This document shows positions 49,595 to 61,495 of a DNA stretch of 64,000 nt, piece after piece; the first letter of the stretch is position 1, and the number at the start of each line of letters is the position of its first letter. The position numbers and the translations under genes are program-made. The notes under the pieces are model-generated. The model was not told where the DNA came from. It saw only the letters and a list, made by a program, of their open reading frames with translations, and did no database searches. The stretch is taken from NCBI RefSeq assembly GCF_002554795.1, contig NZ_PDEQ01000010.1, positions 1 to 64,000 on the forward strand. Reading direction: 5' to 3'. This DNA is from Longibacter salinarum. Lineage in GTDB: Bacteria > Bacteroidota > Rhodothermia > Rhodothermales > Salinibacteraceae.

Positions 49595-50164
49595 AATAAA
49601 TCCCCTCTGGAAAAGGTATTGTTCGAGTGACGGTTTGCTCGGGTCGTCCCCTGCATCGACAGGAGACGTCACGGGTTTGCGGACAGGGTACAACAGAACC
49701 GCAACGAGCATGTTTCTGCCGCGATGGCAAGCGCCGAAAACGCGGTAACGGGAGTCCGTACGATACGCGCGTCGGGAAGGTGGTGCAAGGTTGGGGGGAG
49801 GAACTGACGATGAAATCAGTGTTTGAGATCGCCCCGAATCCTGCGTTTGAGGCGTTCAACGAAAAAAGTCGCTCATATCAAGTCACGTCGCCGTCGCGGC
49901 AGGTGCAGTCAGGACAATCCTGATTGGGCGGGTTCGCCTGTCGTTTCCGATTCGGCCAAATCGTATCTTCATATGTGACTCCAGGGTTGCGTTTTTCTTA
50001 CCCCCTTCCAGTGCATGGTGTCGCGCTACCGTTCCGGGGCAGGCGGCGTTGTGCTTCAATGCAAAGGCTCAGCAGATGAATCTGTGTCCCCTTTCCCTAC
50101 CTGCATGGCATCGTGATCCGCCGGCGTGGCCATGTAGATCGGAGAGGGGCTCGAGGTGGGGAGC
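49595..50164. other. Intergenic region before the sigma-54 activator
   Basis: 570 bp between divergent genes, with no supported protein. A 37-codon frame at 49810-49923 has no sign of being real. AT-rich segments near 49960-50010 may hold the activator's promoter. No -24/-12 element was found here. Confidence 0.4.
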
Positions 50165-51520
50165 ATGGGTGCACGTACGACGGAGGGAGATAAACCGGTA
50201 TGGGTCCATAGTAATAATGCCGGAGTCGTCGGTGAGCTATGCCTGTCGTTGACAGAAGCTGGAATCAAGGCGGAAGTCTTTCGTGACGACCTCTTGCCAG
50301 AAAAAGGGCTCATCATCGTCGTGGCTGCGTCCGGATCTCAACTGGTCGAGAAGCTGATCGGGGATGTGGGAGACGGGCGGATCGTCGTCGTGGTGACGGA
50401 CCGTATTTCAGCATCCGATGCCTGGAAATTGCTCGACCTCGGTGCTGTTGATGTGATCTCGTACCATTGCCCATCGCAGGTTGCCCGGTCCATTCAGGGG
50501 CGACTCGACCGGTGGACTGCAATTGAGCACTGGATCGATGCGCCGATCGTGAGCCGTCATCTGATCGGTCGAAGCCGTGCGTGGAAGCAGGCCCTTCGTC
50601 GAGCGATTGAAGCGGCTCTATTCTCTCAAGGCCCGATCCTGATCCAGGGAGAGACAGGGACTGGAAAAGAGCTTGTGGCCCGATTGATACACACGCTCGA
50701 CCCGCGACCAGATAAGGAAAAAATTGTGGTTCTCGATTGCACGACGATCGTCCCCGAGTTGTCTGGAAGTGAGTTTTTCGGACACGAAAAAGGTGCCTTT
50801 ACAAATGCCCTCAAAACACGGGTGGGGGCGTGCGAACTGGCGGATGGAGGCACCCTTTTCCTGGATGAGATCGGTGACCTCCCGGGGACGCTGCAAGCGG
50901 AGTTACTGCGCGTGATCCAGGAAAAGACGTTCAAGCGTGTCGGAAGTCATACGTGGCGCTCGGCCGAGTTTCGACTGGTTTGTGCAACGCACCGGGACCT
51001 GCGGAAAATGATCGAGGGCGGGACGTTCCGCGAGGACCTGTATCACCGAATTGCGGGATGGGAGATGGTCCTTCCACCACTGCGCGATCGTCGCGAAGAC
51101 ATCATCCTTCTTGCGAATCACTTTCTCGCAGAAATCGGGACCGAGACGCCCATTCATCTCGATCCTTTGGTTCAAGATGCCCTCATGGGTCGAGACTTTT
51201 CTGGGAATGTGCGCGAGCTACGGCAGCTGATTCGCCGCATGGGCGGACGGCATCTCGCCGGAGGCTTGATCACGATGTCAGACCTGCCGGCCGAGGATGG
51301 ACGTCTGTTGGGTCGCGAAACGGGGCTCAGGAATAACAACGTTCGTCAGTACATTCGACAGGCTATCGCGTCGGGAATTGGGTTAAAGGAGCTATGCCGC
51401 AGGACCGGAGATCTCGCGGTAGAGATCGCACTGGAGGATGCCAATGGAAACGTTAGTCAGGCGGCTGAGCGTTTGCAGGTGACACGCCGGACGATCCAGA
51501 TGCGTAAAGCGCAGTCATGA
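50165..51520 (+). CDS. Sigma-54-dependent activator with degenerate receiver domain and GAFTNA loop
   Basis: An AAA+ enhancer-binding protein of 451 residues; ATG 50165 is preferred to GTG 50156. The N-terminal 115 residues fold like a response-regulator receiver by pattern, but the phosphoacceptor position reads IIVVAASGS, so Asp is missing. The AAA+ domain has Walker A GETGTGKE (about 162-169), Walker B TLFLDEIGD and the Arg finger region FREDLYHR. The sigma-54 contact loop reads GAFTNA (about 210-215) in place of GAFTGA. A Fis-type helix-turn-helix ends the protein (NVSQAAERLQVTRRTIQ). It converges on the four-gene minus-strand set at 51614-57302 and probably controls it. Confidence 0.9.
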   Translation: MGARTTEGDKPVWVHSNNAGVVGELCLSLTEAGIKAEVFRDDLLPEKGLIIVVAASGSQLVEKLIGDVGDGRIVVVVTDRISASDAWKLLDLGAVDVISYHCPSQVARSIQGRLDRWTAIEHWIDAPIVSRHLIGRSRAWKQALRRAIEAALFSQGPILIQGETGTGKELVARLIHTLDPRPDKEKIVVLDCTTIVPELSGSEFFGHEKGAFTNALKTRVGACELADGGTLFLDEIGDLPGTLQAELLRVIQEKTFKRVGSHTWRSAEFRLVCATHRDLRKMIEGGTFREDLYHRIAGWEMVLPPLRDRREDIILLANHFLAEIGTETPIHLDPLVQDALMGRDFSGNVRELRQLIRRMGGRHLAGGLITMSDLPAEDGRLLGRETGLRNNNVRQYIRQAIASGIGLKELCRRTGDLAVEIALEDANGNVSQAAERLQVTRRTIQMRKAQS

Positions 51521-51613: not shown

Positions 51614-52660
51614 CTACCATCGGATTTTGACGACGCCGGTCGGTACGTTGCGAACACGTTTATTGATGTAGAACGTGTTTCGTCCGAACTGTTTGATGCC
51701 GTCCACCTCGCCGATCCACTCCATATACCGCTTGGTATGGCGAGCGATGTAATTCCGCCATTCCTGGTAATTTGGAGCACGACCGTAGCGGCGTTTGAAG
51801 TAGATGTACGGGTTTGCGAAGTCCGTGGCGTTTCCAACCGGATTCGGAAGCTGGCCTCTCAACCCCCGTATAGCCATTCGTCTGGACGATGTCTTCAGAT
51901 TCCGCCACGATCGGTTTCGCAGTGGCCGGCCGGGGTGTAGCGGACTTGAGTATTTGTAGAGAAACGAGGCGAACGTGGGGTAGCTGGATCTATGGTGCTG
52001 GAGGAATGCATACAGGTTCAGCATCGACCAGACGATCGCGGCGGTCTCGGGCGTTTCGCGGCCGCTATTTTCCCCCTCGAGCATGCGCGCGGTCACAAGC
52101 AGATCTTCCGGGGTGAACTGGTAGAGGCCGATGGTCCGAGTAAAGTCTCTATTTGACTTCAACGTGAGCTTGCCCAGCGCGATCTCCGACAATCTCGGAG
52201 GGGTCGGAGCATCGGCAGGGCCTTGATGCGTAGATCTGCCGCGCAGAACGCGCCGCATGGCCCGCCACGTTTTAGGACCGAGAATGCCGTCCACAACAAG
52301 GCCGTTGGCACGCTGCCATCGTGCAACCGCCTGCGAAAACACGGAGAGTGCAGGCGTCTGGCGTCGAAATCCGAGGAGCCGAACGATGGCGTTGAACGCA
52401 CGGTCCCAGCCGAGCCGTCGAGCCCAGTACAGGTTGCGCCGGTTGGCTCTTTCGAGACGAATGCGGGGCACGTGCTCGAATGACATCGATTGGGACGCAG
52501 TGCCCGCACGAGGTCGCGAAGGATAGCCTCCGATCTCGTGCTTCTTACGCTGATTCCGACGAGAGCGGCGGGCCCGGCGTTTAACAGGTTTTTCCGCCCG
52601 GCACTTCGGACACATGCAGGTCGAATCTTGAGGCGAGAATGAGCGCCGAATTGTAGGCAT
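51614..52660 (-). CDS. Peptidoglycan-binding protein with a SleB-like hydrolase region and CxCxxC N-terminus
   Basis: 348 residues. The N-terminus has a CMCPKC cluster (Cys 15, 17, 20) and an Arg/Lys-rich stretch (about 22-40), with no signal peptide. A PG_binding_1 domain follows (about 104-138, FSQAVARWQRANGLVVDGILGPKTW). A region with TARMLEGENSGRETPETAAIVWSMLN (about 190-215) resembles SleB-type cell-wall hydrolases and carries the candidate Glu pair E195/E197. The C-terminal 100 residues are basic and aromatic. Without a Sec signal, export by another route or release by lysis would be needed. It is last in the minus-strand set, 149 bp after the 694-residue gene. Confidence 0.72.
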   Translation of the reverse strand: MPTIRRSFSPQDSTCMCPKCRAEKPVKRRARRSRRNQRKKHEIGGYPSRPRAGTASQSMSFEHVPRIRLERANRRNLYWARRLGWDRAFNAIVRLLGFRRQTPALSVFSQAVARWQRANGLVVDGILGPKTWRAMRRVLRGRSTHQGPADAPTPPRLSEIALGKLTLKSNRDFTRTIGLYQFTPEDLLVTARMLEGENSGRETPETAAIVWSMLNLYAFLQHHRSSYPTFASFLYKYSSPLHPGRPLRNRSWRNLKTSSRRMAIRGLRGQLPNPVGNATDFANPYIYFKRRYGRAPNYQEWRNYIARHTKRYMEWIGEVDGIKQFGRNTFYINKRVRNVPTGVVKIRW

Positions 52661-52809: not shown

Positions 52810-54894
52810 TCAGCGAAGACTCCGGCGCTTGGACGACGATTGACGAGTTAGCTCCGACTGGACGGCTCCCGGAATGCGCTTTGTGCCGTTCCCCTTCCGG
52901 AGTTGGTTGGTTCGCCGACGGATGAGCTTGGCGGGCTGCACGGTTCGCATCTTGGCGATGGTCGCATTGGGGGGCGCGGCCGACAGATCGATCCCGGTCA
53001 GAGCCTGATAGGCGTGGATGTAGCTCTTCACCTCCGAGCGCCAGTAGCGAGCCCAGTTCTTCGCCCGGTCCTGATCGATCGTCTGAACCCAGTCGCCCAG
53101 GCGGATGGACAGCAAGAGTTGCTCGCCGTACACACCGAGGTCGCGGAAGTGATTGACGGGAAGGCCGGTCCAGCCCTGCATCGTGTTCATGATGTCCACC
53201 TGTCCCATCCATTCCTCCTGATACGGCACCATCGGACGTCCGCGCAGGAACTCGCGCATCTCGTCTCGGCTCAGCATATACTGCATCGTCATCATCTCTG
53301 AGCGCGCGGTCCAGGGCAAGTCGCCGTACTGATTATGTGCTCCCTGAGCGAGCAAGATGTGAACTTCCTTCAGGGCATTCAGAAGGGCGAAGCCATCTGA
53401 GATGATGGTCGTGTTGTTGTCCTCGATGTAGAACTGGGAGCAGCGAAGGAGCAGGTTGTGGAAGGCTTCCAGAAAGTGAACACGACTGTCCGCGGTCCGC
53501 ATCTGAGGCACGGCTTTGCCTTCGAGCGCCAGCCCGTACTGGTGTGCATACTCATGCACCCGTCGCGACACCGACAGTCGCTGGAACTCGTTCTGCACAA
53601 ACCCCCAGATCAGATTGTTGAGTGGGCGCAGTGGGTCGAGCGTCAGGTTAGCGAGCGGGTCATTTTGTCTCAGACTCTTATTCTGGAATCGGAGACTGAT
53701 CGCGCTGAGCGCCTGAACGAGCATACCGGATTCGTGCCAGTACGACCAGATCAGCTCGATCATGCACGGATCCGGGTTCGAGATACCATAGCAGAACGGC
53801 GATTCCGTAAAGGCATCACTCAGGCCGTCGCTGAAGTTGGTGGTAACGACTTGCTGGATGTAGGGTAACCGGTCTCGGCCCAGAAACGTCGTCAGGTAGT
53901 CCGTTAGCTCACGCCGAATCTCTTCGTGGCTTGCGGATCGTTGGAGACGACTGCTCTCAGCCGCGAGATCCTGTTCGTAAGCGTCCGTGTCGATCGTGAT
54001 GTCACCACATCCGAAGAGCAGGAGGAACGCATCGGTGGCGACACGAAGTAGGTTGTACGCCTCCACATTCCCCGTCGTGACGAGACCAAACTTTAGCTTG
54101 TCTTGCTTGCGTCGAAGTTCTTCGGTGACGGCATTCGGTACCTGGCCGTCATTCGTGTTCTCACAAAACACCTGGTCGATGAACTCCTTGTAGGCGCCAA
54201 ATCGTAACCCGTCTGTGCGTTGCCGGATTGCGACCCACAACGCCTGGTCCCTCGTCGGGTTGGCCTCGGGTCGCGTCAGCCGAACGTCTTTTGTTTCCTC
54301 CGAGAGATTGTCGATGATGTCTGGGTCGGCATACAGGGTTTGATCCTGGATCCGGGCCACCTCAGCCAGTTCGACATCGCCCTCGGACCGGAAGATTGCT
54401 TCGATTCGTCCGACGACGTCTTCTCCCCCGGTTCCCTGGTAGAGGGGAATGGACCGATCGCCCGTTCGGGACAGCTCGCGTCCGGGGAGTGGGGAAATCA
54501 CGACGGGGAAGCGGCCGTTGGATTGGGCTTGTTCGTCGGATCGGGCCAGCGCACCGGAAAACGTACCATCCTTCTTCTTCGGAAAGATTCGGAAGAACAC
54601 GCTCGGGGTGACGGTCGGATCGGCAAGAGCGGTGTTTGGGATAACAAAATCATCGAAGACGAATCGGAAGGAATCGTCTCCAGTCGATTGCGAGTCCGTA
54701 TCTGGAATTAGGGCGACGGTTGCGAGTGCATTATCGACACCGGCAGTCCGTACATCCGCTGCGAAGACGGCAAGATGAAGCGCTGGAAGCGTGTCTGGTG
54801 TAATCGATTCCTCTCGGGACTCGATGGTGCGAAACGCTTGTGGCTGCAGGAAGACCGAGCCCGTGATTGTATATGTCGGGGTAGGATCAGGCAT
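52810..54894 (-). CDS. Large protein of unknown family with beta-sandwich N-terminus, 694 residues
   Basis: No known family can be assigned. Residues about 1-140 look like one or two beta-sandwich domains (YTITGSVFLQPQAF, LHLAVFAADVRTAG, FRFVFDDFVIPN). From about 190 on, the protein is long and helical, with many aromatic residues and well-formed segments such as ELIWSYWHESGMLVQALSAI, LDPLRPLNNLIWGFVQNE, DSRVHFLEAFHNLLLRCSQF, LPWTARSEMMTMQYML and NWARYWRSEVKSYIHAYQAL. The last 45 residues are Arg/Lys-rich. Such dense motifs indicate strong conservation. There is no signal peptide. It lies 57 bp after the zincin-like gene and is probably co-transcribed. Confidence 0.75.
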   Translation of the reverse strand: MPDPTPTYTITGSVFLQPQAFRTIESREESITPDTLPALHLAVFAADVRTAGVDNALATVALIPDTDSQSTGDDSFRFVFDDFVIPNTALADPTVTPSVFFRIFPKKKDGTFSGALARSDEQAQSNGRFPVVISPLPGRELSRTGDRSIPLYQGTGGEDVVGRIEAIFRSEGDVELAEVARIQDQTLYADPDIIDNLSEETKDVRLTRPEANPTRDQALWVAIRQRTDGLRFGAYKEFIDQVFCENTNDGQVPNAVTEELRRKQDKLKFGLVTTGNVEAYNLLRVATDAFLLLFGCGDITIDTDAYEQDLAAESSRLQRSASHEEIRRELTDYLTTFLGRDRLPYIQQVVTTNFSDGLSDAFTESPFCYGISNPDPCMIELIWSYWHESGMLVQALSAISLRFQNKSLRQNDPLANLTLDPLRPLNNLIWGFVQNEFQRLSVSRRVHEYAHQYGLALEGKAVPQMRTADSRVHFLEAFHNLLLRCSQFYIEDNNTTIISDGFALLNALKEVHILLAQGAHNQYGDLPWTARSEMMTMQYMLSRDEMREFLRGRPMVPYQEEWMGQVDIMNTMQGWTGLPVNHFRDLGVYGEQLLLSIRLGDWVQTIDQDRAKNWARYWRSEVKSYIHAYQALTGIDLSAAPPNATIAKMRTVQPAKLIRRRTNQLRKGNGTKRIPGAVQSELTRQSSSKRRSLR

Positions 54895-54951: not shown

Positions 54952-56322
54952 CTAGTGGGTAGGTGCTTTCGGGATCTCCTTCGGCAGGCGGGTTCGGTCT
55001 GGGTGGAGAGTCGAGCGGAGGGCCCAGTAGTTGAGCAGTCGCGCGAGGAGTTGTCCCTCGGCGTCTGCGCTGATGCGCCCGTCCGCTTTTGCCTGGCCGA
55101 GAACGGCAAACACGAGGGACGGGTCGTGTCTGATCATTTGCTCGACATCACCTTGCCATCGGGGCCAGAGCGAGCGGAACAGTCTGGGCTGTCGCTCGGG
55201 TACCGGGAATAGCGTTTCAAGCGCTCGCCCCTTCATTCTCGCGGGCCGGTGACTCCGCAGAGCGCGAACGAATGTGGGCATGTGCCGATGAACGGCCGCG
55301 AACACATTTCGCTCTCGCTTTCGTGCCTCCCGCAGCGGATAGTACCGGTGCCATGACGCCTCCAGCCGATCCCACTGCGGGTCCGGGAAGAGCTGCCGCC
55401 CCATCTCGCAACTGAGCAGCACGCGCACCCACGGCGGTGGATGGGGGTCGTCTGCTCCCAATCGGAAAACGAACGCTCGCGGTAGCGCCACCACCCCCAT
55501 GAGCCCCAGTGTGCTGCCTACGCCGAGTTGTGCGATCGCCCATAGATCAGCGATAATCTCGGAAATCCACCGCTCCCAGTAGATCCAGATGGCTTCTGAA
55601 CGGGATCGCCGGTTCAGGTCGTAGCGAATCGAACTCACAAGGTCCAGAAGGGCTGCCCCCTGATGTCCGACTTCGTGGAGAAGGGAAGACGCGATGCCAC
55701 TGCCGATCATCCGTTCGCGCGGTACTCGAATAATCGCGACAGGGTTACGTCCACCGCCGGGGAGGCGCGTCCGGGCCCGCCGAATGGCCGCTCCCTGTCC
55801 GCGGTCGAGGTAGCACAGCACGGGCGGTGGGCGATACGGAGCTCCTGGAAGAGCGAGCGCGCGGGCTGCGACCGTATCGAGTCCTCCCAGACGAGCGCCG
55901 TGGTCGTGTTCGCTTCGCTGCGTCAGTACGTCGGCAAACAGATCGAACTGCGTCAGCACGCGATTGAACATCAGCTTCAGGTGCACGAACCGCCCGTGTG
56001 CACGATTGGCGGACGTTCGTCGGCCCGTTGGACTGTCGAGCCATCGCAGGTACTCCTCGACACGTCTTCGCAGGTGTTTTCGACCCTGTACGAGATAGCG
56101 TTCGATCGCCTGCTGGGTGACCGGCCCGGGAGCAGCTGCGGGCGTCATCGGCATCAGCAGCGCAAACGGCTTCACGCGCGACAGCCGATCCAGCAGAGCA
56201 AGGGCTTCTTGTCGAAGCAACTCGTGGGATGAAAGGGTAGACGGACGAGGCATTGGAAGCGAAGGCATTGGAGAACAGGCCGGCGGACTGTACCCGACCG
56301 TCGGGTGGGTCCGATGCGTCAT
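54952..56322 (-). CDS. HExxH zincin-like protein of unknown substrate
   Basis: 456 residues from the first ATG; Met 19 or 24 could also start. The motif HEVGH (216-220) is followed about 35 residues later by WISEIIADLWAI, whose Glu (255) or Asp (259) could be the third zinc ligand, as in gluzincins. A Pro-rich segment precedes it. The C-terminal half is helical and Arg-rich (MKGRALETLFPVPERQPRLF), ending with a segment like a terB-type helical bundle (FAVLGQAKADGRISADAEGQ). No signal peptide is seen. It follows the polyacidic gene by 29 bp and so is very likely in the same transcript. A protease that processes or activates a partner is the simplest guess. Confidence 0.7.
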   Translation of the reverse strand: MTHRTHPTVGYSPPACSPMPSLPMPRPSTLSSHELLRQEALALLDRLSRVKPFALLMPMTPAAAPGPVTQQAIERYLVQGRKHLRRRVEEYLRWLDSPTGRRTSANRAHGRFVHLKLMFNRVLTQFDLFADVLTQRSEHDHGARLGGLDTVAARALALPGAPYRPPPVLCYLDRGQGAAIRRARTRLPGGGRNPVAIIRVPRERMIGSGIASSLLHEVGHQGAALLDLVSSIRYDLNRRSRSEAIWIYWERWISEIIADLWAIAQLGVGSTLGLMGVVALPRAFVFRLGADDPHPPPWVRVLLSCEMGRQLFPDPQWDRLEASWHRYYPLREARKRERNVFAAVHRHMPTFVRALRSHRPARMKGRALETLFPVPERQPRLFRSLWPRWQGDVEQMIRHDPSLVFAVLGQAKADGRISADAEGQLLARLLNYWALRSTLHPDRTRLPKEIPKAPTH

Positions 56323-56351: not shown

Positions 56352-57302
56352 CTAGAAGAAAAACTCCTTGTCCGCCCCGTTCTTCTTCGCCAACCCAGGA
56401 GCGTGCTTCGCCGAGGCTTTCTTAATTGCCTGCTTCGCCACCGTTTTCGCGGGGAGCATTTTGGGTGCCTCCATGGCTTCTCGCGTGGCTTCGCCTGCCA
56501 GTCTCACGTAGCGGCGGGCCACTTCGAACTCCTGATCTTCTGGGCTCAGACCTTCGAGCTCGAGGCCGAATGCGTCCGAAGCCAGCTTTCCGAATCGCCC
56601 TCCATAGTGCCGACCGCGGCGACCGAAGAACTCTCCGCCGATGTCGCGTCCGAGTGCGGGGAGCACCTGTCGTCCCGTGTACCGTAATCCGCGCGTCAGA
56701 GCACGTCCTGTGCGCGATCGCATGAAGCGACGGCCGTACCGCTGGATGCCGGGAGAGGGGCGTCGGCGACGGTAGCGGCGGCGAGGAGACCGGTACGTGC
56801 GTCGACGGCTGTGCGGGTGACGGCGTCTCCGCCTTCTTCGTCTCCTTCGTCGGCGCCGTTTGCCTCCTCCGAACAGTCCCTTCACGGCTTTGCCGGCGAA
56901 CTTGGCCGCTTTCGGCAGAATTTTTTTCGCTGCACCGATCGCGACAGGAGCCAGAGCAGATGCAATGGTGCCGAGGAACTGGTCCATATCCTCGTCATCT
57001 TGCACGGTCAGCAGCTCGGCGGCAAGCTCCATCTCCGTCTGTTCGTCGAAGGGGCCCGGCATGTCATACTCGAACTCGTCGTAGTCGGAGTCATACTCAA
57101 ATTCGAACTCGTCATCGTCCTCGTCGTCGTAATCCGCTTCCCACTCGTACTCGAATTCGTCGTCTTCGTCGTCCTCGTCAAGAATGGCATCCAGATCGGA
57201 CTCGTATTCGAACTCGAATTCGTCGTAGTCTCCGTCGTATTCCATTTCCAACTCTCCGTATTCGTCAGGGTGCTCCAGGGTCGTGCGGTCCAGGTCGTGC
57301 AT
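56352..57302 (-). CDS. Polyacidic/polyarginine protein, first gene of the sigma-54-linked set
   Basis: With ATG 57302 (MHDLDRTTLEHPDEYGELEM) the protein has 316 residues. Residues 1-108 are almost only Asp, Glu, Tyr and Phe in repeats like DEFEFEYESD. A hydrophobic Ala/Gly helix follows (about 109-146, FLGTIASALAPVAIGAAKK), then 13 Arg in a row (about 149-161) and an Arg/Tyr/Gly-rich part to about 240. The C-terminus is an ordinary helical domain (LSPEDQEFEVARRYVRLAGE) with a Lys-rich end. The Arg run uses six different codons, so it is not a simple DNA expansion. A sigma-54-like promoter lies upstream. Opposite charges in one chain could drive condensation or carry cargo. Confidence 0.75.
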   Translation of the reverse strand: MHDLDRTTLEHPDEYGELEMEYDGDYDEFEFEYESDLDAILDEDDEDDEFEYEWEADYDDEDDDEFEFEYDSDYDEFEYDMPGPFDEQTEMELAAELLTVQDDEDMDQFLGTIASALAPVAIGAAKKILPKAAKFAGKAVKGLFGGGKRRRRRRRRRRRRRHPHSRRRTYRSPRRRYRRRRPSPGIQRYGRRFMRSRTGRALTRGLRYTGRQVLPALGRDIGGEFFGRRGRHYGGRFGKLASDAFGLELEGLSPEDQEFEVARRYVRLAGEATREAMEAPKMLPAKTVAKQAIKKASAKHAPGLAKKNGADKEFFF

Positions 57303-57778: not shown

Positions 57779-60700
57779 TTAGGCGTCGAGGCCGAGTGCG
57801 GCCATGACCACTTTCTCTTGCTCGTGCTTATGCACCTTGGCGGAGCCGGTGGCCGGGCTGGCGCTGGCGGGGCGTCCGACGTACTGGACCTGCTCCTCGC
57901 ACGTGCCGTGGATGTCGGCCAGCAGCTCGTCCAGGCGCCAGCGGAGGAAGGACCAAGCGCCCATGTTCTGCGGCTCTTCCTGGACCCAGAACGTTTCCGC
58001 ATCCTGGTAGCGCTCAAGCTGCTCACAGAGATCCTCTTCCGGGAACGGATAGAACTGCTCGACCCGGGTGATGGCCACTTTGTTCTGCAACTCGTCGTGG
58101 TTTTCAAGCTCCTTGACGAGGTCGTAGTAGACCTTGCCGCTGCAGATGAGGTGACGCTCCGTGGTCGACGGATCCGTCTCAGCCGGGATGACTTCCTGCA
58201 CGCCGCCGTCCGTGAGTTCGTCGGGCGTCGACACGCACATCGGGTGACGCAGAAGACTCTTCGGCGTCATGACGATGAGCGGCTTCTTGACGTCGCGCTT
58301 GACCTGGCGGCGAAGGGCATGGAAGTAGTTCGCCGGGGTGGAGAAGTTGGCGACGACCATGTTCTGCTCGGCGCAGAGCTGCAGGAAGCGCTCGAGGCGG
58401 GCGGAGGAGTGCTCCGGTCCCTGACCCTCGAAGCCGTGCGGCAGCAGTGCGACGAGGCTGGAGGTCTGTCCCCATTTCTCCTCGGCGGCGCTGATGAACT
58501 GGTCCCAGATGATCTGTGCGCCGTTGGCGAAGTCACCGAACTGCGCCTCCCACATGACGAGCGCCGACGGGTCGGCCACTGAGTAGCCGTATTCGAAGCC
58601 GAGGACGGCGTACTCCGACAGCAGGCTATCGTAAATCAACAGAGGCGCCTGATCGGGCGAGAGATTATTGACCGGGGTGTACTCGTCGCCGTTCTCCTGA
58701 TCGATCAGCACAGCATGGCGCTGACTGAACGTGGCGCGTCGCGAGTCCTGACCGGTCAGGCGGATCTTGGTGCCTTCCTGAAGAAGCGACCCGAAGGCGA
58801 GGATTTCAGAGAACGCCCAGTTGATCCGTTCCTGCTCGTAGAAGAGGTCATCCCGCTTCGCGAACTGACGCTTCAGCTTGGGATGGACGTTGAAGTCGTC
58901 CGGCAGGTTGGTCAGTGCATCGACGACGCGCTCAAGATGATCGCGCTTCGCCCGGGTGTCGACCTCGGGGAGGCGGGCATCCGCCTTGCGGCGTGCTTTG
59001 CGCTCGATCGTCGTCTCTGCGTCCTTCTCCTCAAGATCCTTCGTACGGTCGAAGGCCTCCTGCAGGCGGTCGCGATAATCGTCGAGCATCTGCTCGGCCT
59101 CGTCCGGCTCCAGTTCGCCGCGGCGGAGCAGGAGCTCCGTGTAGAGCTTGCGGGGCGAGCGCTTCTCCTCAATCTTCTCGTAGAGGAGCGGCTGCGTGAA
59201 GGTCGGCTCGTCGCCCTCGTTGTGGCCGTGGACGCGGTAGCACATCATGTCGATGACCACATCCTTGTTGAAGCGCTGCCGGTATTCGAAGGCAAGGCGC
59301 GCGATGCGTACGCAGGCTTCGGGATCGTCGCCGTTGACGTGGAAGATCGGCGCCTCGATGGCACGTGCCAGATCCGTCGCGTATGTCGACGAGCGAGCGT
59401 CTTCCGGGACGGTGGTAAAGCCGATCTGGTTGTTGATGACCAGGTGGACCGTGCCGCCGGTCTTGTAGCCGCGGAGCTGGCTCAGGTTGAGCGTTTCTGC
59501 AACCACACCCTGCCCCGGGAACGCCGCGTCGCCGTGGACGAGGAGCGGGAAGACCTTGTCGTAGTACTCGCCGTCCGTGTTGGACGGGTGGTCGCCGCGC
59601 ATCAGGTTCTGCTTCGCGCGCACCATGCCTTCCACCGTCGGGTTGACGGCCTCGAGGTGGCTCGGGTTGGAGGCGAGCGTGACGTCGATGTCTTCGCCGT
59701 CCATCGACGTGAAGGTGCCCTCGTTGCCAAGGTGGTACTTCACGTCGCCCGATCCCTGCGTCGTGTTGGGGTCGATGCTTCCCTCAAACTCGGAGAAGAT
59801 CTGCTCGTACGGCTTGCCGATAATATTGGCGAGCACGTTGAGGCGGCCCCGGTGAGCCATGCCCATGACGACCTCCTCGAGCCCCTGATTGGCGGCGTCG
59901 GAGAGGATGGTGTCGACGATCGGAATCATCGTCTCGCCACCCTCCAGCGAGAAGCGCTTGTGCCCGATATACTTCGTGTGCAGGAAGCGCTCGAACGACT
60001 CCGCCGCGTTGAGCTTCTGCATGATCCGAAGCCGCTCTTCTTTCGAGAGCGTCGGCTCGTCGTTTTGCGGCTCGATGCGGCTCTGGATCCACTTCTTCTC
60101 TTCCGGATCGGAGAGGTGCATGAAGGCCGTGCCGATCTTCCGCGTGTAGGCTTCGCGGAGGACCTTCAGGATCTCGCGGAGGGGAAGGCGTTCTTCTCCG
60201 CCCAGACCGCCGGTGATGAACTCGCGGTCGAGGTCCCAGACGGTGAGGCCGTACGTGGCGGGATCGAGCTCGGTGTGGTATTGCCACTCGTAGCCGAGCG
60301 GGTTCGTGTCCGCCTGCAAGTGGCCGCGGACGCGGTACGCGCGAATGAGCTGCAGGACCGACGCTTGTTTCTCCGTCATGTCCAGCTCATTCTGCTGGCC
60401 GGGCTGACCGAGTTGCGGAGTCGAGTCGCTGAGCATGCGGAACGGTTGGTACGGCACGCCCAGATCCGAGAAGAGCTGGTTGTAGAAGTCGTGCTGCCCC
60501 ATGAGCTGCTCCTCAATGTAGTTGAGGAACGCGCCGCTTTCCGCACCCTGGATGACGCGGTGGTCGTACGTGGACGTGAGCGTCATGACCGGCGAAATAC
60601 CCGCTTTGCTCACCACGCTGTCGGCGTATCCGCGGTACTCCGGCGGGTAGCCGATCGCGCCAGCACCAACGATGACGCCCTGTCCCGGCATGAGGCGCGC

Positions 60701-61495
60701 GACACTCATCGACGTGCCGATCATGCCCGGGTTCGTGAGCGTCGCGGTCGTGCCCTCGAAGTCTGAAATCTTGAGGTTGCCGTTCCGCGTCCGGTTGATC
60801 AGGTCGTTGTACGTGCCGAGGAACTGGGCGAAGTTCATTGACCCAGCGTCCTTGATGTTTGGCACCATCAGCGTGCGCTTGCCGCGCCGCTCGATGTCGA
60901 TCGCCAGACCGAAGTTGATCTGCTTCGGCATGATGTGCTGCGGCGTGCCCTCCTCGTCTCGAGAGAAAGTGCTGTACAGCGACGGCTGTTCTTTCAGCGC
61001 CTGCACGACCGCGTAGGCGATGATGTGCGTGAACGACACCTTCTCGCCACCGACCTGGCGCTGGTAGTCGTTCAGCAGCTTCCGGTTTTCGAGGAGAAGC
61101 TTCACCGGCATGCGGCGAACGGAGGTCGCCGTCGGGACGCCGAGGCTGTCCTCCATGTTCTCGACGATCTTCGCCGCCGGCCCACGGAGCGCCTGCACCT
61201 CGACCTTGTCCTCGGCAACGGCTGGAGCGGACGCCGGCGTGATCGGGGCGCCATCCCCGGTCGGCTGCTTTGCCTCGGCAGGCTTGGCCTGCTTATCGGG
61301 GGCAGAGGGGGCGGCCGCAGTCTCACCATCACCTTTTGGTGGCGTTTCCTTCGTTGGCGTCGCCGCGACGAACGACTCATCGGGGTGGTAATCAGCAAAG
61401 AAGTCCCGCCAGCTTTCGCTTACGCTGCTGGGATCCTCTTGGTATTGCTTGTACAGCTCTTCAATGTAGCCCGTATTGAATCCGAGGGAGCTCAC
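57779..61495 (-). CDS. kgd: Fused 2-oxoglutarate dehydrogenase E1 / succinyltransferase domain protein
   Basis: A 1238-residue multifunctional enzyme like actinobacterial Kgd/OdhA. The short E1 N-terminal segment (LGFNTGYIEELYKQYQEDP, 1-40) is followed by an Ala/Pro linker (about 45-97). An E2-type acyltransferase domain (about 105-330) has its catalytic His312 in TYDHRVIQGAESG. The TPP-dependent E1 part (about 370-1238) has HRGRLNVLANIIGKP, HGDAAFPGQGVV, INNQIGFTT and YRVHGHNEGDEP. No lipoyl domain is present, so a separate lipoylated E2 protein is needed. It catalyses the 2-oxoglutarate to succinyl-CoA step just before the Sdh reaction. Two terminators follow. Confidence 0.95.
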   Translation of the reverse strand: MSSLGFNTGYIEELYKQYQEDPSSVSESWRDFFADYHPDESFVAATPTKETPPKGDGETAAAPSAPDKQAKPAEAKQPTGDGAPITPASAPAVAEDKVEVQALRGPAAKIVENMEDSLGVPTATSVRRMPVKLLLENRKLLNDYQRQVGGEKVSFTHIIAYAVVQALKEQPSLYSTFSRDEEGTPQHIMPKQINFGLAIDIERRGKRTLMVPNIKDAGSMNFAQFLGTYNDLINRTRNGNLKISDFEGTTATLTNPGMIGTSMSVARLMPGQGVIVGAGAIGYPPEYRGYADSVVSKAGISPVMTLTSTYDHRVIQGAESGAFLNYIEEQLMGQHDFYNQLFSDLGVPYQPFRMLSDSTPQLGQPGQQNELDMTEKQASVLQLIRAYRVRGHLQADTNPLGYEWQYHTELDPATYGLTVWDLDREFITGGLGGEERLPLREILKVLREAYTRKIGTAFMHLSDPEEKKWIQSRIEPQNDEPTLSKEERLRIMQKLNAAESFERFLHTKYIGHKRFSLEGGETMIPIVDTILSDAANQGLEEVVMGMAHRGRLNVLANIIGKPYEQIFSEFEGSIDPNTTQGSGDVKYHLGNEGTFTSMDGEDIDVTLASNPSHLEAVNPTVEGMVRAKQNLMRGDHPSNTDGEYYDKVFPLLVHGDAAFPGQGVVAETLNLSQLRGYKTGGTVHLVINNQIGFTTVPEDARSSTYATDLARAIEAPIFHVNGDDPEACVRIARLAFEYRQRFNKDVVIDMMCYRVHGHNEGDEPTFTQPLLYEKIEEKRSPRKLYTELLLRRGELEPDEAEQMLDDYRDRLQEAFDRTKDLEEKDAETTIERKARRKADARLPEVDTRAKRDHLERVVDALTNLPDDFNVHPKLKRQFAKRDDLFYEQERINWAFSEILAFGSLLQEGTKIRLTGQDSRRATFSQRHAVLIDQENGDEYTPVNNLSPDQAPLLIYDSLLSEYAVLGFEYGYSVADPSALVMWEAQFGDFANGAQIIWDQFISAAEEKWGQTSSLVALLPHGFEGQGPEHSSARLERFLQLCAEQNMVVANFSTPANYFHALRRQVKRDVKKPLIVMTPKSLLRHPMCVSTPDELTDGGVQEVIPAETDPSTTERHLICSGKVYYDLVKELENHDELQNKVAITRVEQFYPFPEEDLCEQLERYQDAETFWVQEEPQNMGAWSFLRWRLDELLADIHGTCEEQVQYVGRPASASPATGSAKVHKHEQEKVVMAALGLDA

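What the first reader, a model, noticed from the sequence alone, without database searches (positions are those of the whole stretch)
56352..57302. Charge-block protein: 108 acidic residues, a hydrophobic helix, then 13 arginines
The acid block is made of Asp/Glu alternating with Tyr/Phe, the basic block of Arg with Tyr/Gly. The run of 13 Arg uses six codons, so selection on protein and not slippage keeps it. This layout fits a condensate former, a DNA/polyanion carrier, or a protein kept soluble until the acid part is cut off, possibly by the adjacent HExxH protein.
Basis: partly seen in the sequence, partly recalled or inferred. Interest (0 to 1): 0.68.

Follow-up and report, generated by a model that had tools for sequence, protein, structure and literature searches.

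The report
Charge-balanced glycine-zipper protein with metalloprotease partner
The odd acid-then-arginine protein is an extreme member of a bacterial protein family that nobody seems to have described; it sits beside its own zinc protease in a cassette of cell-wall-cutting and other candidate effector genes found in at least five phyla, which looks like an unstudied bacterial weapon or self-lysis system.

Summary
The gene (56352-57302, minus strand, 316 aa) has an acidic first block (54 Asp/Glu in the first 108 residues, not 108 acidic residues), an amphipathic stretch, and 13 Arg written with six codons. It is not an orphan: 42 related loci plus a Rhizobium plasmid carry the family, and all 40 aligned members keep an acidic block (9-53 D/E) followed by a basic core (6-46 K/R, 0-3 D/E). 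The core's signature is a glycine zipper, then a motif with five invariant Glu. Acid and base numbers rise together (Spearman 0.74; 0.74 after tree correction). The Arg run is private to this genome. The partner at 54952-56322 has conserved gluzincin-type motifs (HEVGH 44/44, Glu 43/43) and occurs in all 43 loci. Behind the pair lie a conserved protein of unknown fold, variable cargo (peptidoglycan hydrolases, trypsins, OmpA, one deaminase-like) often marked CxCxxC, and a convergent sigma54 activator. Most likely: a neutralised, membrane-active core protein, unmasked by its protease, in an effector cassette. Activity and cleavage are untested.

The parts
56352..57302 (-). Charge-block glycine-zipper protein ('HOM', 316 aa)
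   Evidence: family of 40+ members
57024..57302 (-). Acidic block, residues 1-93 (48 D/E, 1 K/R), starts with family motif MHDLDRT
56964..57005 (-). Conserved V-x-[ND]-[ED]-x-E-L-x-x-F-L-G motif (residues 100-113), resembles the E-L-x-x-I-x-G part of double-glycine leaders
   Evidence: E 38/40, L 36/40, F 39/40, G 36/40
56859..56969 (-). Hydrophobic/amphipathic Lys-rich stretch, residues 112-148 (partly an insertion relative to the family)
56820..56858 (-). Run of 13 Arg, residues 149-161, all six Arg codons; private to this genome
56589..56651 (-). Glycine zipper, residues 218-238 (G at 218, 222, 230, 234, 238; F at 226)
   Evidence: exact spacing of 4 in 35/40 members
56517..56567 (-). Family motif GLELEGLSPEDQEFEVA (residues 246-262), E248 E250 E255 E258 E260 invariant
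54952..56322 (-). Partner metallopeptidase MP1 (456 aa), 29 bp downstream
55663..55677 (-). HEVGH predicted zinc-binding motif of MP1 (residues 216-220)
   Evidence: H, E, H conserved 44/44
55558..55560 (-). Glu255 of MP1, predicted third zinc ligand (E-I-x-x-D)
   Evidence: 43/43 conserved
52810..54894 (-). MP2, 694-aa conserved partner of unknown fold; its HEYAH is NOT conserved, so not a metallopeptidase
51614..52660 (-). Cargo gene: CxCxxC + PG_binding_1 + weak SleB-like match (candidate peptidoglycan hydrolase)
52601..52618 (-). CMCPKC, the CxCxxC motif shared by many cargo proteins
50156..51520 (+). Convergent sigma54-interaction activator at the far end of the cassette

Best explanation
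The protein is the core component of a mobile effector cassette. The glycine-zipper/basic core is the active part: it is expected to oligomerise and disturb or insert in membranes. The acidic N-block is a built-in neutraliser that balances the charge of the core, keeping the stored protein soluble and harmless. The adjacent gluzincin-type protease removes or clips the acidic block, probably near the conserved ELxxFLG motif, when the sigma54-linked activator switches the cassette on. The unmasked core then permeabilises a membrane, either the producer's own (lysis that frees the cytoplasmic cargo, here a peptidoglycan-binding hydrolase-like protein) or a neighbour's. Shown: family, charge layout and co-variation, glycine zipper, peptidase motif, gene linkage, cargo types. 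Inferred: zinc binding, cleavage, membrane activity, regulation, direction of killing.
For: Layout kept in all 40 aligned members across at least five phyla. Acid number in the N-block follows basic number in the core: Spearman 0.74 without the window protein, phylogenetic contrasts r 0.74 (p 5e-7), partial 0.62 after GC content. Zipper of small residues at exact spacing 4 in 35/40. MP1 in 43 of 43 loci, next to the charge protein in 41; reverse search from MP1 finds a charge-block protein upstream in 5 of 5 other genomes. MP1 keeps H216 E217 H220 in 44/44 and E255 in 43/43; its model (pLDDT 88) aligns weakly with M48 BepA, Z 7.9 and 7.5, and Zn peptidase 3c37, Z 6.6. Cargo includes PG_binding, trypsin, OmpA, Amidase_2, GH25, glucosaminidase, M23, VanY, M74, YkuD, LCAT and an AID/APOBEC-like deaminase domain. 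Sigma54 activator in most loci; RpoN present in the genome. Patchy spread: 1 of 114 genomes of the order.
Against: No experiment; no cleavage site known. In the window protein the residues between the zipper glycines are partly charged (GRDIGGEFFGRRGRHYGG), a poor membrane segment, and the highest 19-residue hydropathy is modest (about 0.5-1.4) in the whole family. The acid block also correlates, more weakly, with K/R in the C-terminal tail (0.48), so the co-variation is not exclusive to the core. No immunity gene recognised. Some family members in the cargo zone carry CxCxxC instead of the acid block. No convincing -24/-12 promoter upstream.
Confidence: 0.4

Rival explanations
1. Scaffold or condensate: the acid and basic blocks of different molecules pair with each other and with tagged cargo, forming a cytoplasmic store or a coat in which effectors are concentrated; the protease remodels cargo rather than this protein.
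For: Opposite blocks that nearly cancel (net -3 to -17 in all but one member); alternating acid/aromatic pattern; several cargo proteins carry short acidic/aromatic stretches of their own and a shared CxCxxC motif.
Against: Does not by itself explain the conserved glycine zipper and the invariant C-terminal Glu motif; zippers are typical of membrane or self-associating helices.
Confidence: 0.25
2. Surface-displayed contact toxin like Caulobacter CdzC/D: the zipper protein is exported, forms aggregates on the producer and kills on contact.
For: Extended glycine zipper, leader-like ELxxFLG motif, frequent two tandem copies; CdzC/D are glycine-zipper killers (PMC5380434).
Against: No Peptidase_C39 exporter in the genome, control positive; the zipper is interrupted by Pro or charges; length and leader end differ.
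Confidence: 0.12
3. Nucleic-acid or polyanion carrier: the Arg block binds DNA, RNA or lipopolysaccharide.
For: 37 Arg in residues 148-235 of the window protein.
Against: The Arg run is absent from all relatives; the family's basic core is a Lys/Arg helix region with a glycine zipper.
Confidence: 0.08
4. Cell-wall maintenance or morphogenesis cassette, not antagonism: sigma54-controlled remodelling of the producer's own wall.
For: Most recognisable cargo acts on peptidoglycan or has OmpA domains.
Against: Cargo also includes trypsins, an LCAT-like lipase and a deaminase-like protein; presence is patchy, unlike housekeeping.
Confidence: 0.15

Closest known systems
Cdz glycine-zipper bacteriocins (CdzC/CdzD, Caulobacter; PMC5380434)
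   Same: Extended GxxxGxxxG helix after a leader-like segment; two proteins side by side; proposed membrane target
   Different: About 220-340 aa instead of 60-151; acidic block of tens of residues; G followed by K/S/R/N rather than G[G/A/S]; proline or charges inside the zipper; no C39-type exporter found; own metallopeptidase
Polymorphic toxin systems with releasing metallopeptidases (PVC-metallopeptidase; PMC3482391)
   Same: Variable effector domains linked to a HExxH peptidase
   Different: Peptidase is a separate gene, signature HEVGHQ...ExxxD instead of HExxHxxQ-E; no Pfam match; no known trafficking domain recognised
M48 metallopeptidases (BepA)
   Same: HExxH + downstream Glu; weak structural alignment over residues 137-433 of MP1
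   Different: No significant sequence match in Pfam or PDB; Z below 8, not enough for membership
Cationic antimicrobial peptide precursors with acidic prosegments (own knowledge)
   Same: An acidic propiece balances a cationic membrane-active part
   Different: Eukaryotic, short, secreted; no sequence relation tested

Membership tests
Cdz-like glycine-zipper bacteriocins | 60-151 residues long | tested here: not met
   219-341 aa for most members; window 316 (definition)
Cdz-like glycine-zipper bacteriocins | Leader ending in G[G/A/S] | tested here: not met
   After the conserved G: K 22, S 5, R 5, N 4, G 2, T 1 of 40; Thr in the window
Cdz-like glycine-zipper bacteriocins | Glycine zipper not interrupted by proline or charge | tested here: not met
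   Zipper present, but Pro inside it in 33/40 and charges in the window protein
Cdz-like / class II bacteriocins | Export by a peptidase-containing (C39) ABC transporter | tested here: not met
   No PF03412 match in the genome; 8 of 14 controls positive
PVC/eCIS toxin loci | PVC-metallopeptidase signature HExxHxxQ-E | tested here: not met
   HEVGHQ, with Q directly after the second His; no such Pfam match among 38 MP1 members (definition)
PVC/eCIS or T6SS delivery | Contractile tube/sheath genes | tested here: inconclusive
   No VipB (PF05943), E. coli control positive; PF06841 search had no positive control
Gluzincin-type metallopeptidase (MP1) | HExxH and a downstream Glu ligand | tested here: met
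   44/44 and 43/43 conserved; zinc binding itself not testable here
M48 peptidases (MP1) | M48 fold or profile match | tested here: inconclusive
   Z 7.9 to BepA, no Pfam hit
Metallopeptidase (MP2) | Conserved HExxH | tested here: not met
   Consensus is RRxYEYDHHYG in relatives
Known anti-phage defence systems | Match to PADLOC models | tested here: not met
   No hit for six cassette proteins
Polymorphic toxin systems | Experimentally or genetically linked immunity and shared N-terminal trafficking region | tested here: inconclusive
   Shared CxCxxC in 23 of 95 cargo ORFs; no immunity gene recognised

The most novel reading that the evidence does not exclude
A previously undescribed, horizontally spread class of bacterial effector system: a charge-neutralised glycine-zipper pore former activated by a dedicated gluzincin-type protease, with CxCxxC-marked effectors lacking signal peptides that are released or delivered without any known secretion machine.
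Probability: 0.35. Interest if true: 0.88.

Novelty: new variant of a known kind. Interest (0 to 1): 0.7.

Why it matters
Three core proteins shared across at least five phyla have no accepted Pfam, NCBIfam, PADLOC or PHROG family, yet they anchor loci full of candidate antibacterial effectors. If the mechanism holds, it is a new way to store and arm a membrane-active protein (charge balance tuned by evolution, released by a partner protease) and a route to many unrecognised effectors through the CxCxxC mark.

Tried and rejected
Phage origin: no relative in viral contigs. MP2 as the protease: HExxH not conserved. Sigma54 -24/-12 site upstream: best scores are within the shuffled range. Fold identification of MP2: nothing above Z 3.7, which is not evidence of a new fold. 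PDB sequence search with all three families: nothing convincing. Slippage as the source of the Arg run: rejected because all six codons are mixed. Foreign base composition: GC of the cassette (0.56-0.64) is close to its surroundings. Literature: no paper describing this cassette found in five searches of open-access PMC papers; subscription papers and preprints are not held.

Full report
What is there. The gene at 56352-57302 (minus) encodes 316 residues. Residues 1-93 hold 48 D/E and one K/R; from 109 to about 148 the chain is hydrophobic and Lys-rich; 149-161 are 13 Arg, coded by all six Arg codons; 148-235 hold 37 Arg in all. The alternation of acid and aromatic is real: 15 of 16 aromatics in residues 1-84 have acids on both sides, 4.3 expected.

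Family. One scan of genome contigs with the protein found 42 loci, and a plasmid search found two Rhizobium plasmids. Hosts include Bacteroidota (Hymenobacter, Pontibacter, Algoriphagus, Saprospiraceae), Pseudomonadota (Nitrosomonas, Variovorax, Microvirga, Rhizobium), Nitrospirota, Calditrichia and Actinomycetota (Nocardiopsis). The alignment of 40 members shows: an MHDLDRT or MYNNE start; the acid block; E-x-E-L-A-x-E-L-L-x-V-x-N-E-x-E-L-x-x-F-L-G; a core with nearly no acids; a glycine zipper with six positions spaced exactly by four in 35 of 40; ELEGLSPEDQEFEVA, with five invariant Glu; HAPGLL; and a tail GRWxRRGxxIxLxG that the window protein lacks (it ends KEFFF, and only 29 bp separate it from the next gene). 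The window protein has about 70 extra residues in the core, including the Arg run; no relative has more than four Arg in a row.

Charge balance. Counting D/E in the N-block and K/R in the core over 40 members gives Spearman 0.76 (0.74 without the window protein); per-residue density 0.89. Independent contrasts on a tree of the peptidase give r 0.74, p 5e-7, without the window protein. Both counts also follow GC content, but the partial correlation stays at 0.62 (0.73 with lengths as well). A control pairing of N-block acids with K/R of the C-tail is weaker (0.48) though not nil. Total net charge stays between -3 and -17 in all but one member. This is the best sequence evidence that the two blocks act on each other. 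It is correlation, not proof of contact.

The peptidase. The gene 29 bp downstream (54952-56322) has relatives in 43 of 43 loci. In 41 loci it lies next to a family member; in the two Nocardiopsis loci it lies elsewhere in the locus. HEVGH is conserved 44/44 and Glu255 43/43 in an E-[IL]-x-x-D context, the gluzincin layout. No accepted Pfam, NCBIfam or PDB sequence match exists. The AlphaFold2 model is confident (pLDDT 88); Foldseek finds nothing significant, while the second aligner ranks BepA (M48) at Z 7.9/7.5 and Zn peptidase 3c37 at 6.6 over residues 137-433, which is suggestive only. A search from the peptidase, independent of the charge protein, found five further genomes in the phylum sample. 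Three have clear family members directly upstream, one a divergent one (E 6e-14) with the same acid/basic order, and one an 896-residue protein, not an HMM hit, with acidic stretches and Lys/Arg amphipathic helices. The pair is therefore the most stable unit.

The cassette. Next comes MP2 (41 loci; 694 aa in the window). Its HEYAH, which could be mistaken for a second protease site, is not conserved; much of the C-terminal two thirds models with high confidence but matches no known fold. Many loci continue with a PLP enzyme resembling BioF/serine palmitoyltransferase and an amidohydrolase, both missing in the window. Between them lies variable cargo. Of 50 cargo proteins scanned, 11 have PG_binding_1, 10 a trypsin-like domain, 6 OmpA, 4 Amidase_2, and single members match GH25, glucosaminidase, YkuD, VanY, M74, M23, CHAP, LCAT and AID/APOBEC-like deaminases. 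CxCxxC occurs in the first 260 residues of 23 of 95 cargo ORFs against 2 of 525 other ORFs (odds ratio 84); a few of the 23 are ORFs whose coding status is doubtful. The window cargo protein has CMCPKC. A crude hydropathy check shows no clear signal peptide in most of the tagged ones. Several loci carry a family member in the cargo zone with CxCxxC in place of the acid block. A sigma54-interaction activator, convergent, closes the cassette in most loci and in the window; the genome has RpoN, but no sigma54 promoter could be recognised.

Distribution. In the window's order only 1 of 114 genomes has the peptidase, in the phylum sample 6 of 394. That patchiness, across phyla, argues for horizontal spread and an accessory role.

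Interpretation. I favour a stored, charge-neutralised, zipper-bearing membrane-active protein that its protease unmasks, with effectors set free or delivered at the same time. The likeliest alternatives are a scaffold/condensate for effectors, and wall remodelling. Comparison with known systems: it works somewhat like Cdz glycine-zipper killing (PMC5380434) and like polymorphic toxin loci with releasing peptidases (PMC3482391), but fails tested defining features of both. No defence-system model matches, and the phage-family matches are to the cargo's peptidoglycan-binding repeat and, weakly, of one relative's zipper region to tape-measure proteins. I therefore call it a new variant of antagonism-type cassettes, with a fair chance that it is a class of its own.

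Limits. Nothing here demonstrates zinc binding, cleavage, membrane action, killing, immunity or regulation. Locus gene calls are mechanical ORFs. Family size is a lower bound because the scan needs short exact peptide patterns.

Noticed in passing
L037:8459-9178, L042:16664-17395, L045:7965-8792, L039:17942-18793: Paralogues of the charge-block protein in the cargo zone start with CxCxxC and basic residues instead of the acid block, then keep the FLG motif, basic core and tail.
   Followed up: partly
Cargo zones of 19 loci; window 52601-52618: CxCxxC followed by Lys/Arg marks many unrelated cargo proteins (23/95 versus 2/525 other ORFs); it may be a loading or sorting tag.
   Followed up: partly
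L023:15646-16803 and similar Hymenobacter cargo: Fast-changing family with a deaminase-like CxxC look; among 50 cargo proteins one matches AID/APOBEC-like deaminase models, which one was not resolved.
   Followed up: partly
L024:14095-15210, L015:18777-19604: A BioF/serine-palmitoyltransferase-like PLP enzyme and an amidohydrolase are conserved cassette members in most loci but absent from the window; their role is unexplained.
   Followed up: no
window 52810-54894: MP2: a widely conserved protein with many invariant Trp/Tyr/Glu/Arg and no known fold or family.
   Followed up: partly
L056:6054-8744: 896-aa protein upstream of a divergent peptidase with repeated acidic and Lys/Arg amphipathic segments, possibly a fused or expanded version of the charge-block protein.
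   Followed up: partly
L055:8098-12348: Minimal version of the cassette: divergent charge protein, peptidase, possibly MP2-like protein and an M15/VanY-like gene, without a recognised sigma54 activator.
   Followed up: no
window 57779-61495: Long 1238-aa ORF directly upstream looks like a fused succinyltransferase/2-oxoglutarate dehydrogenase E1; unrelated to the cassette.
   Followed up: no
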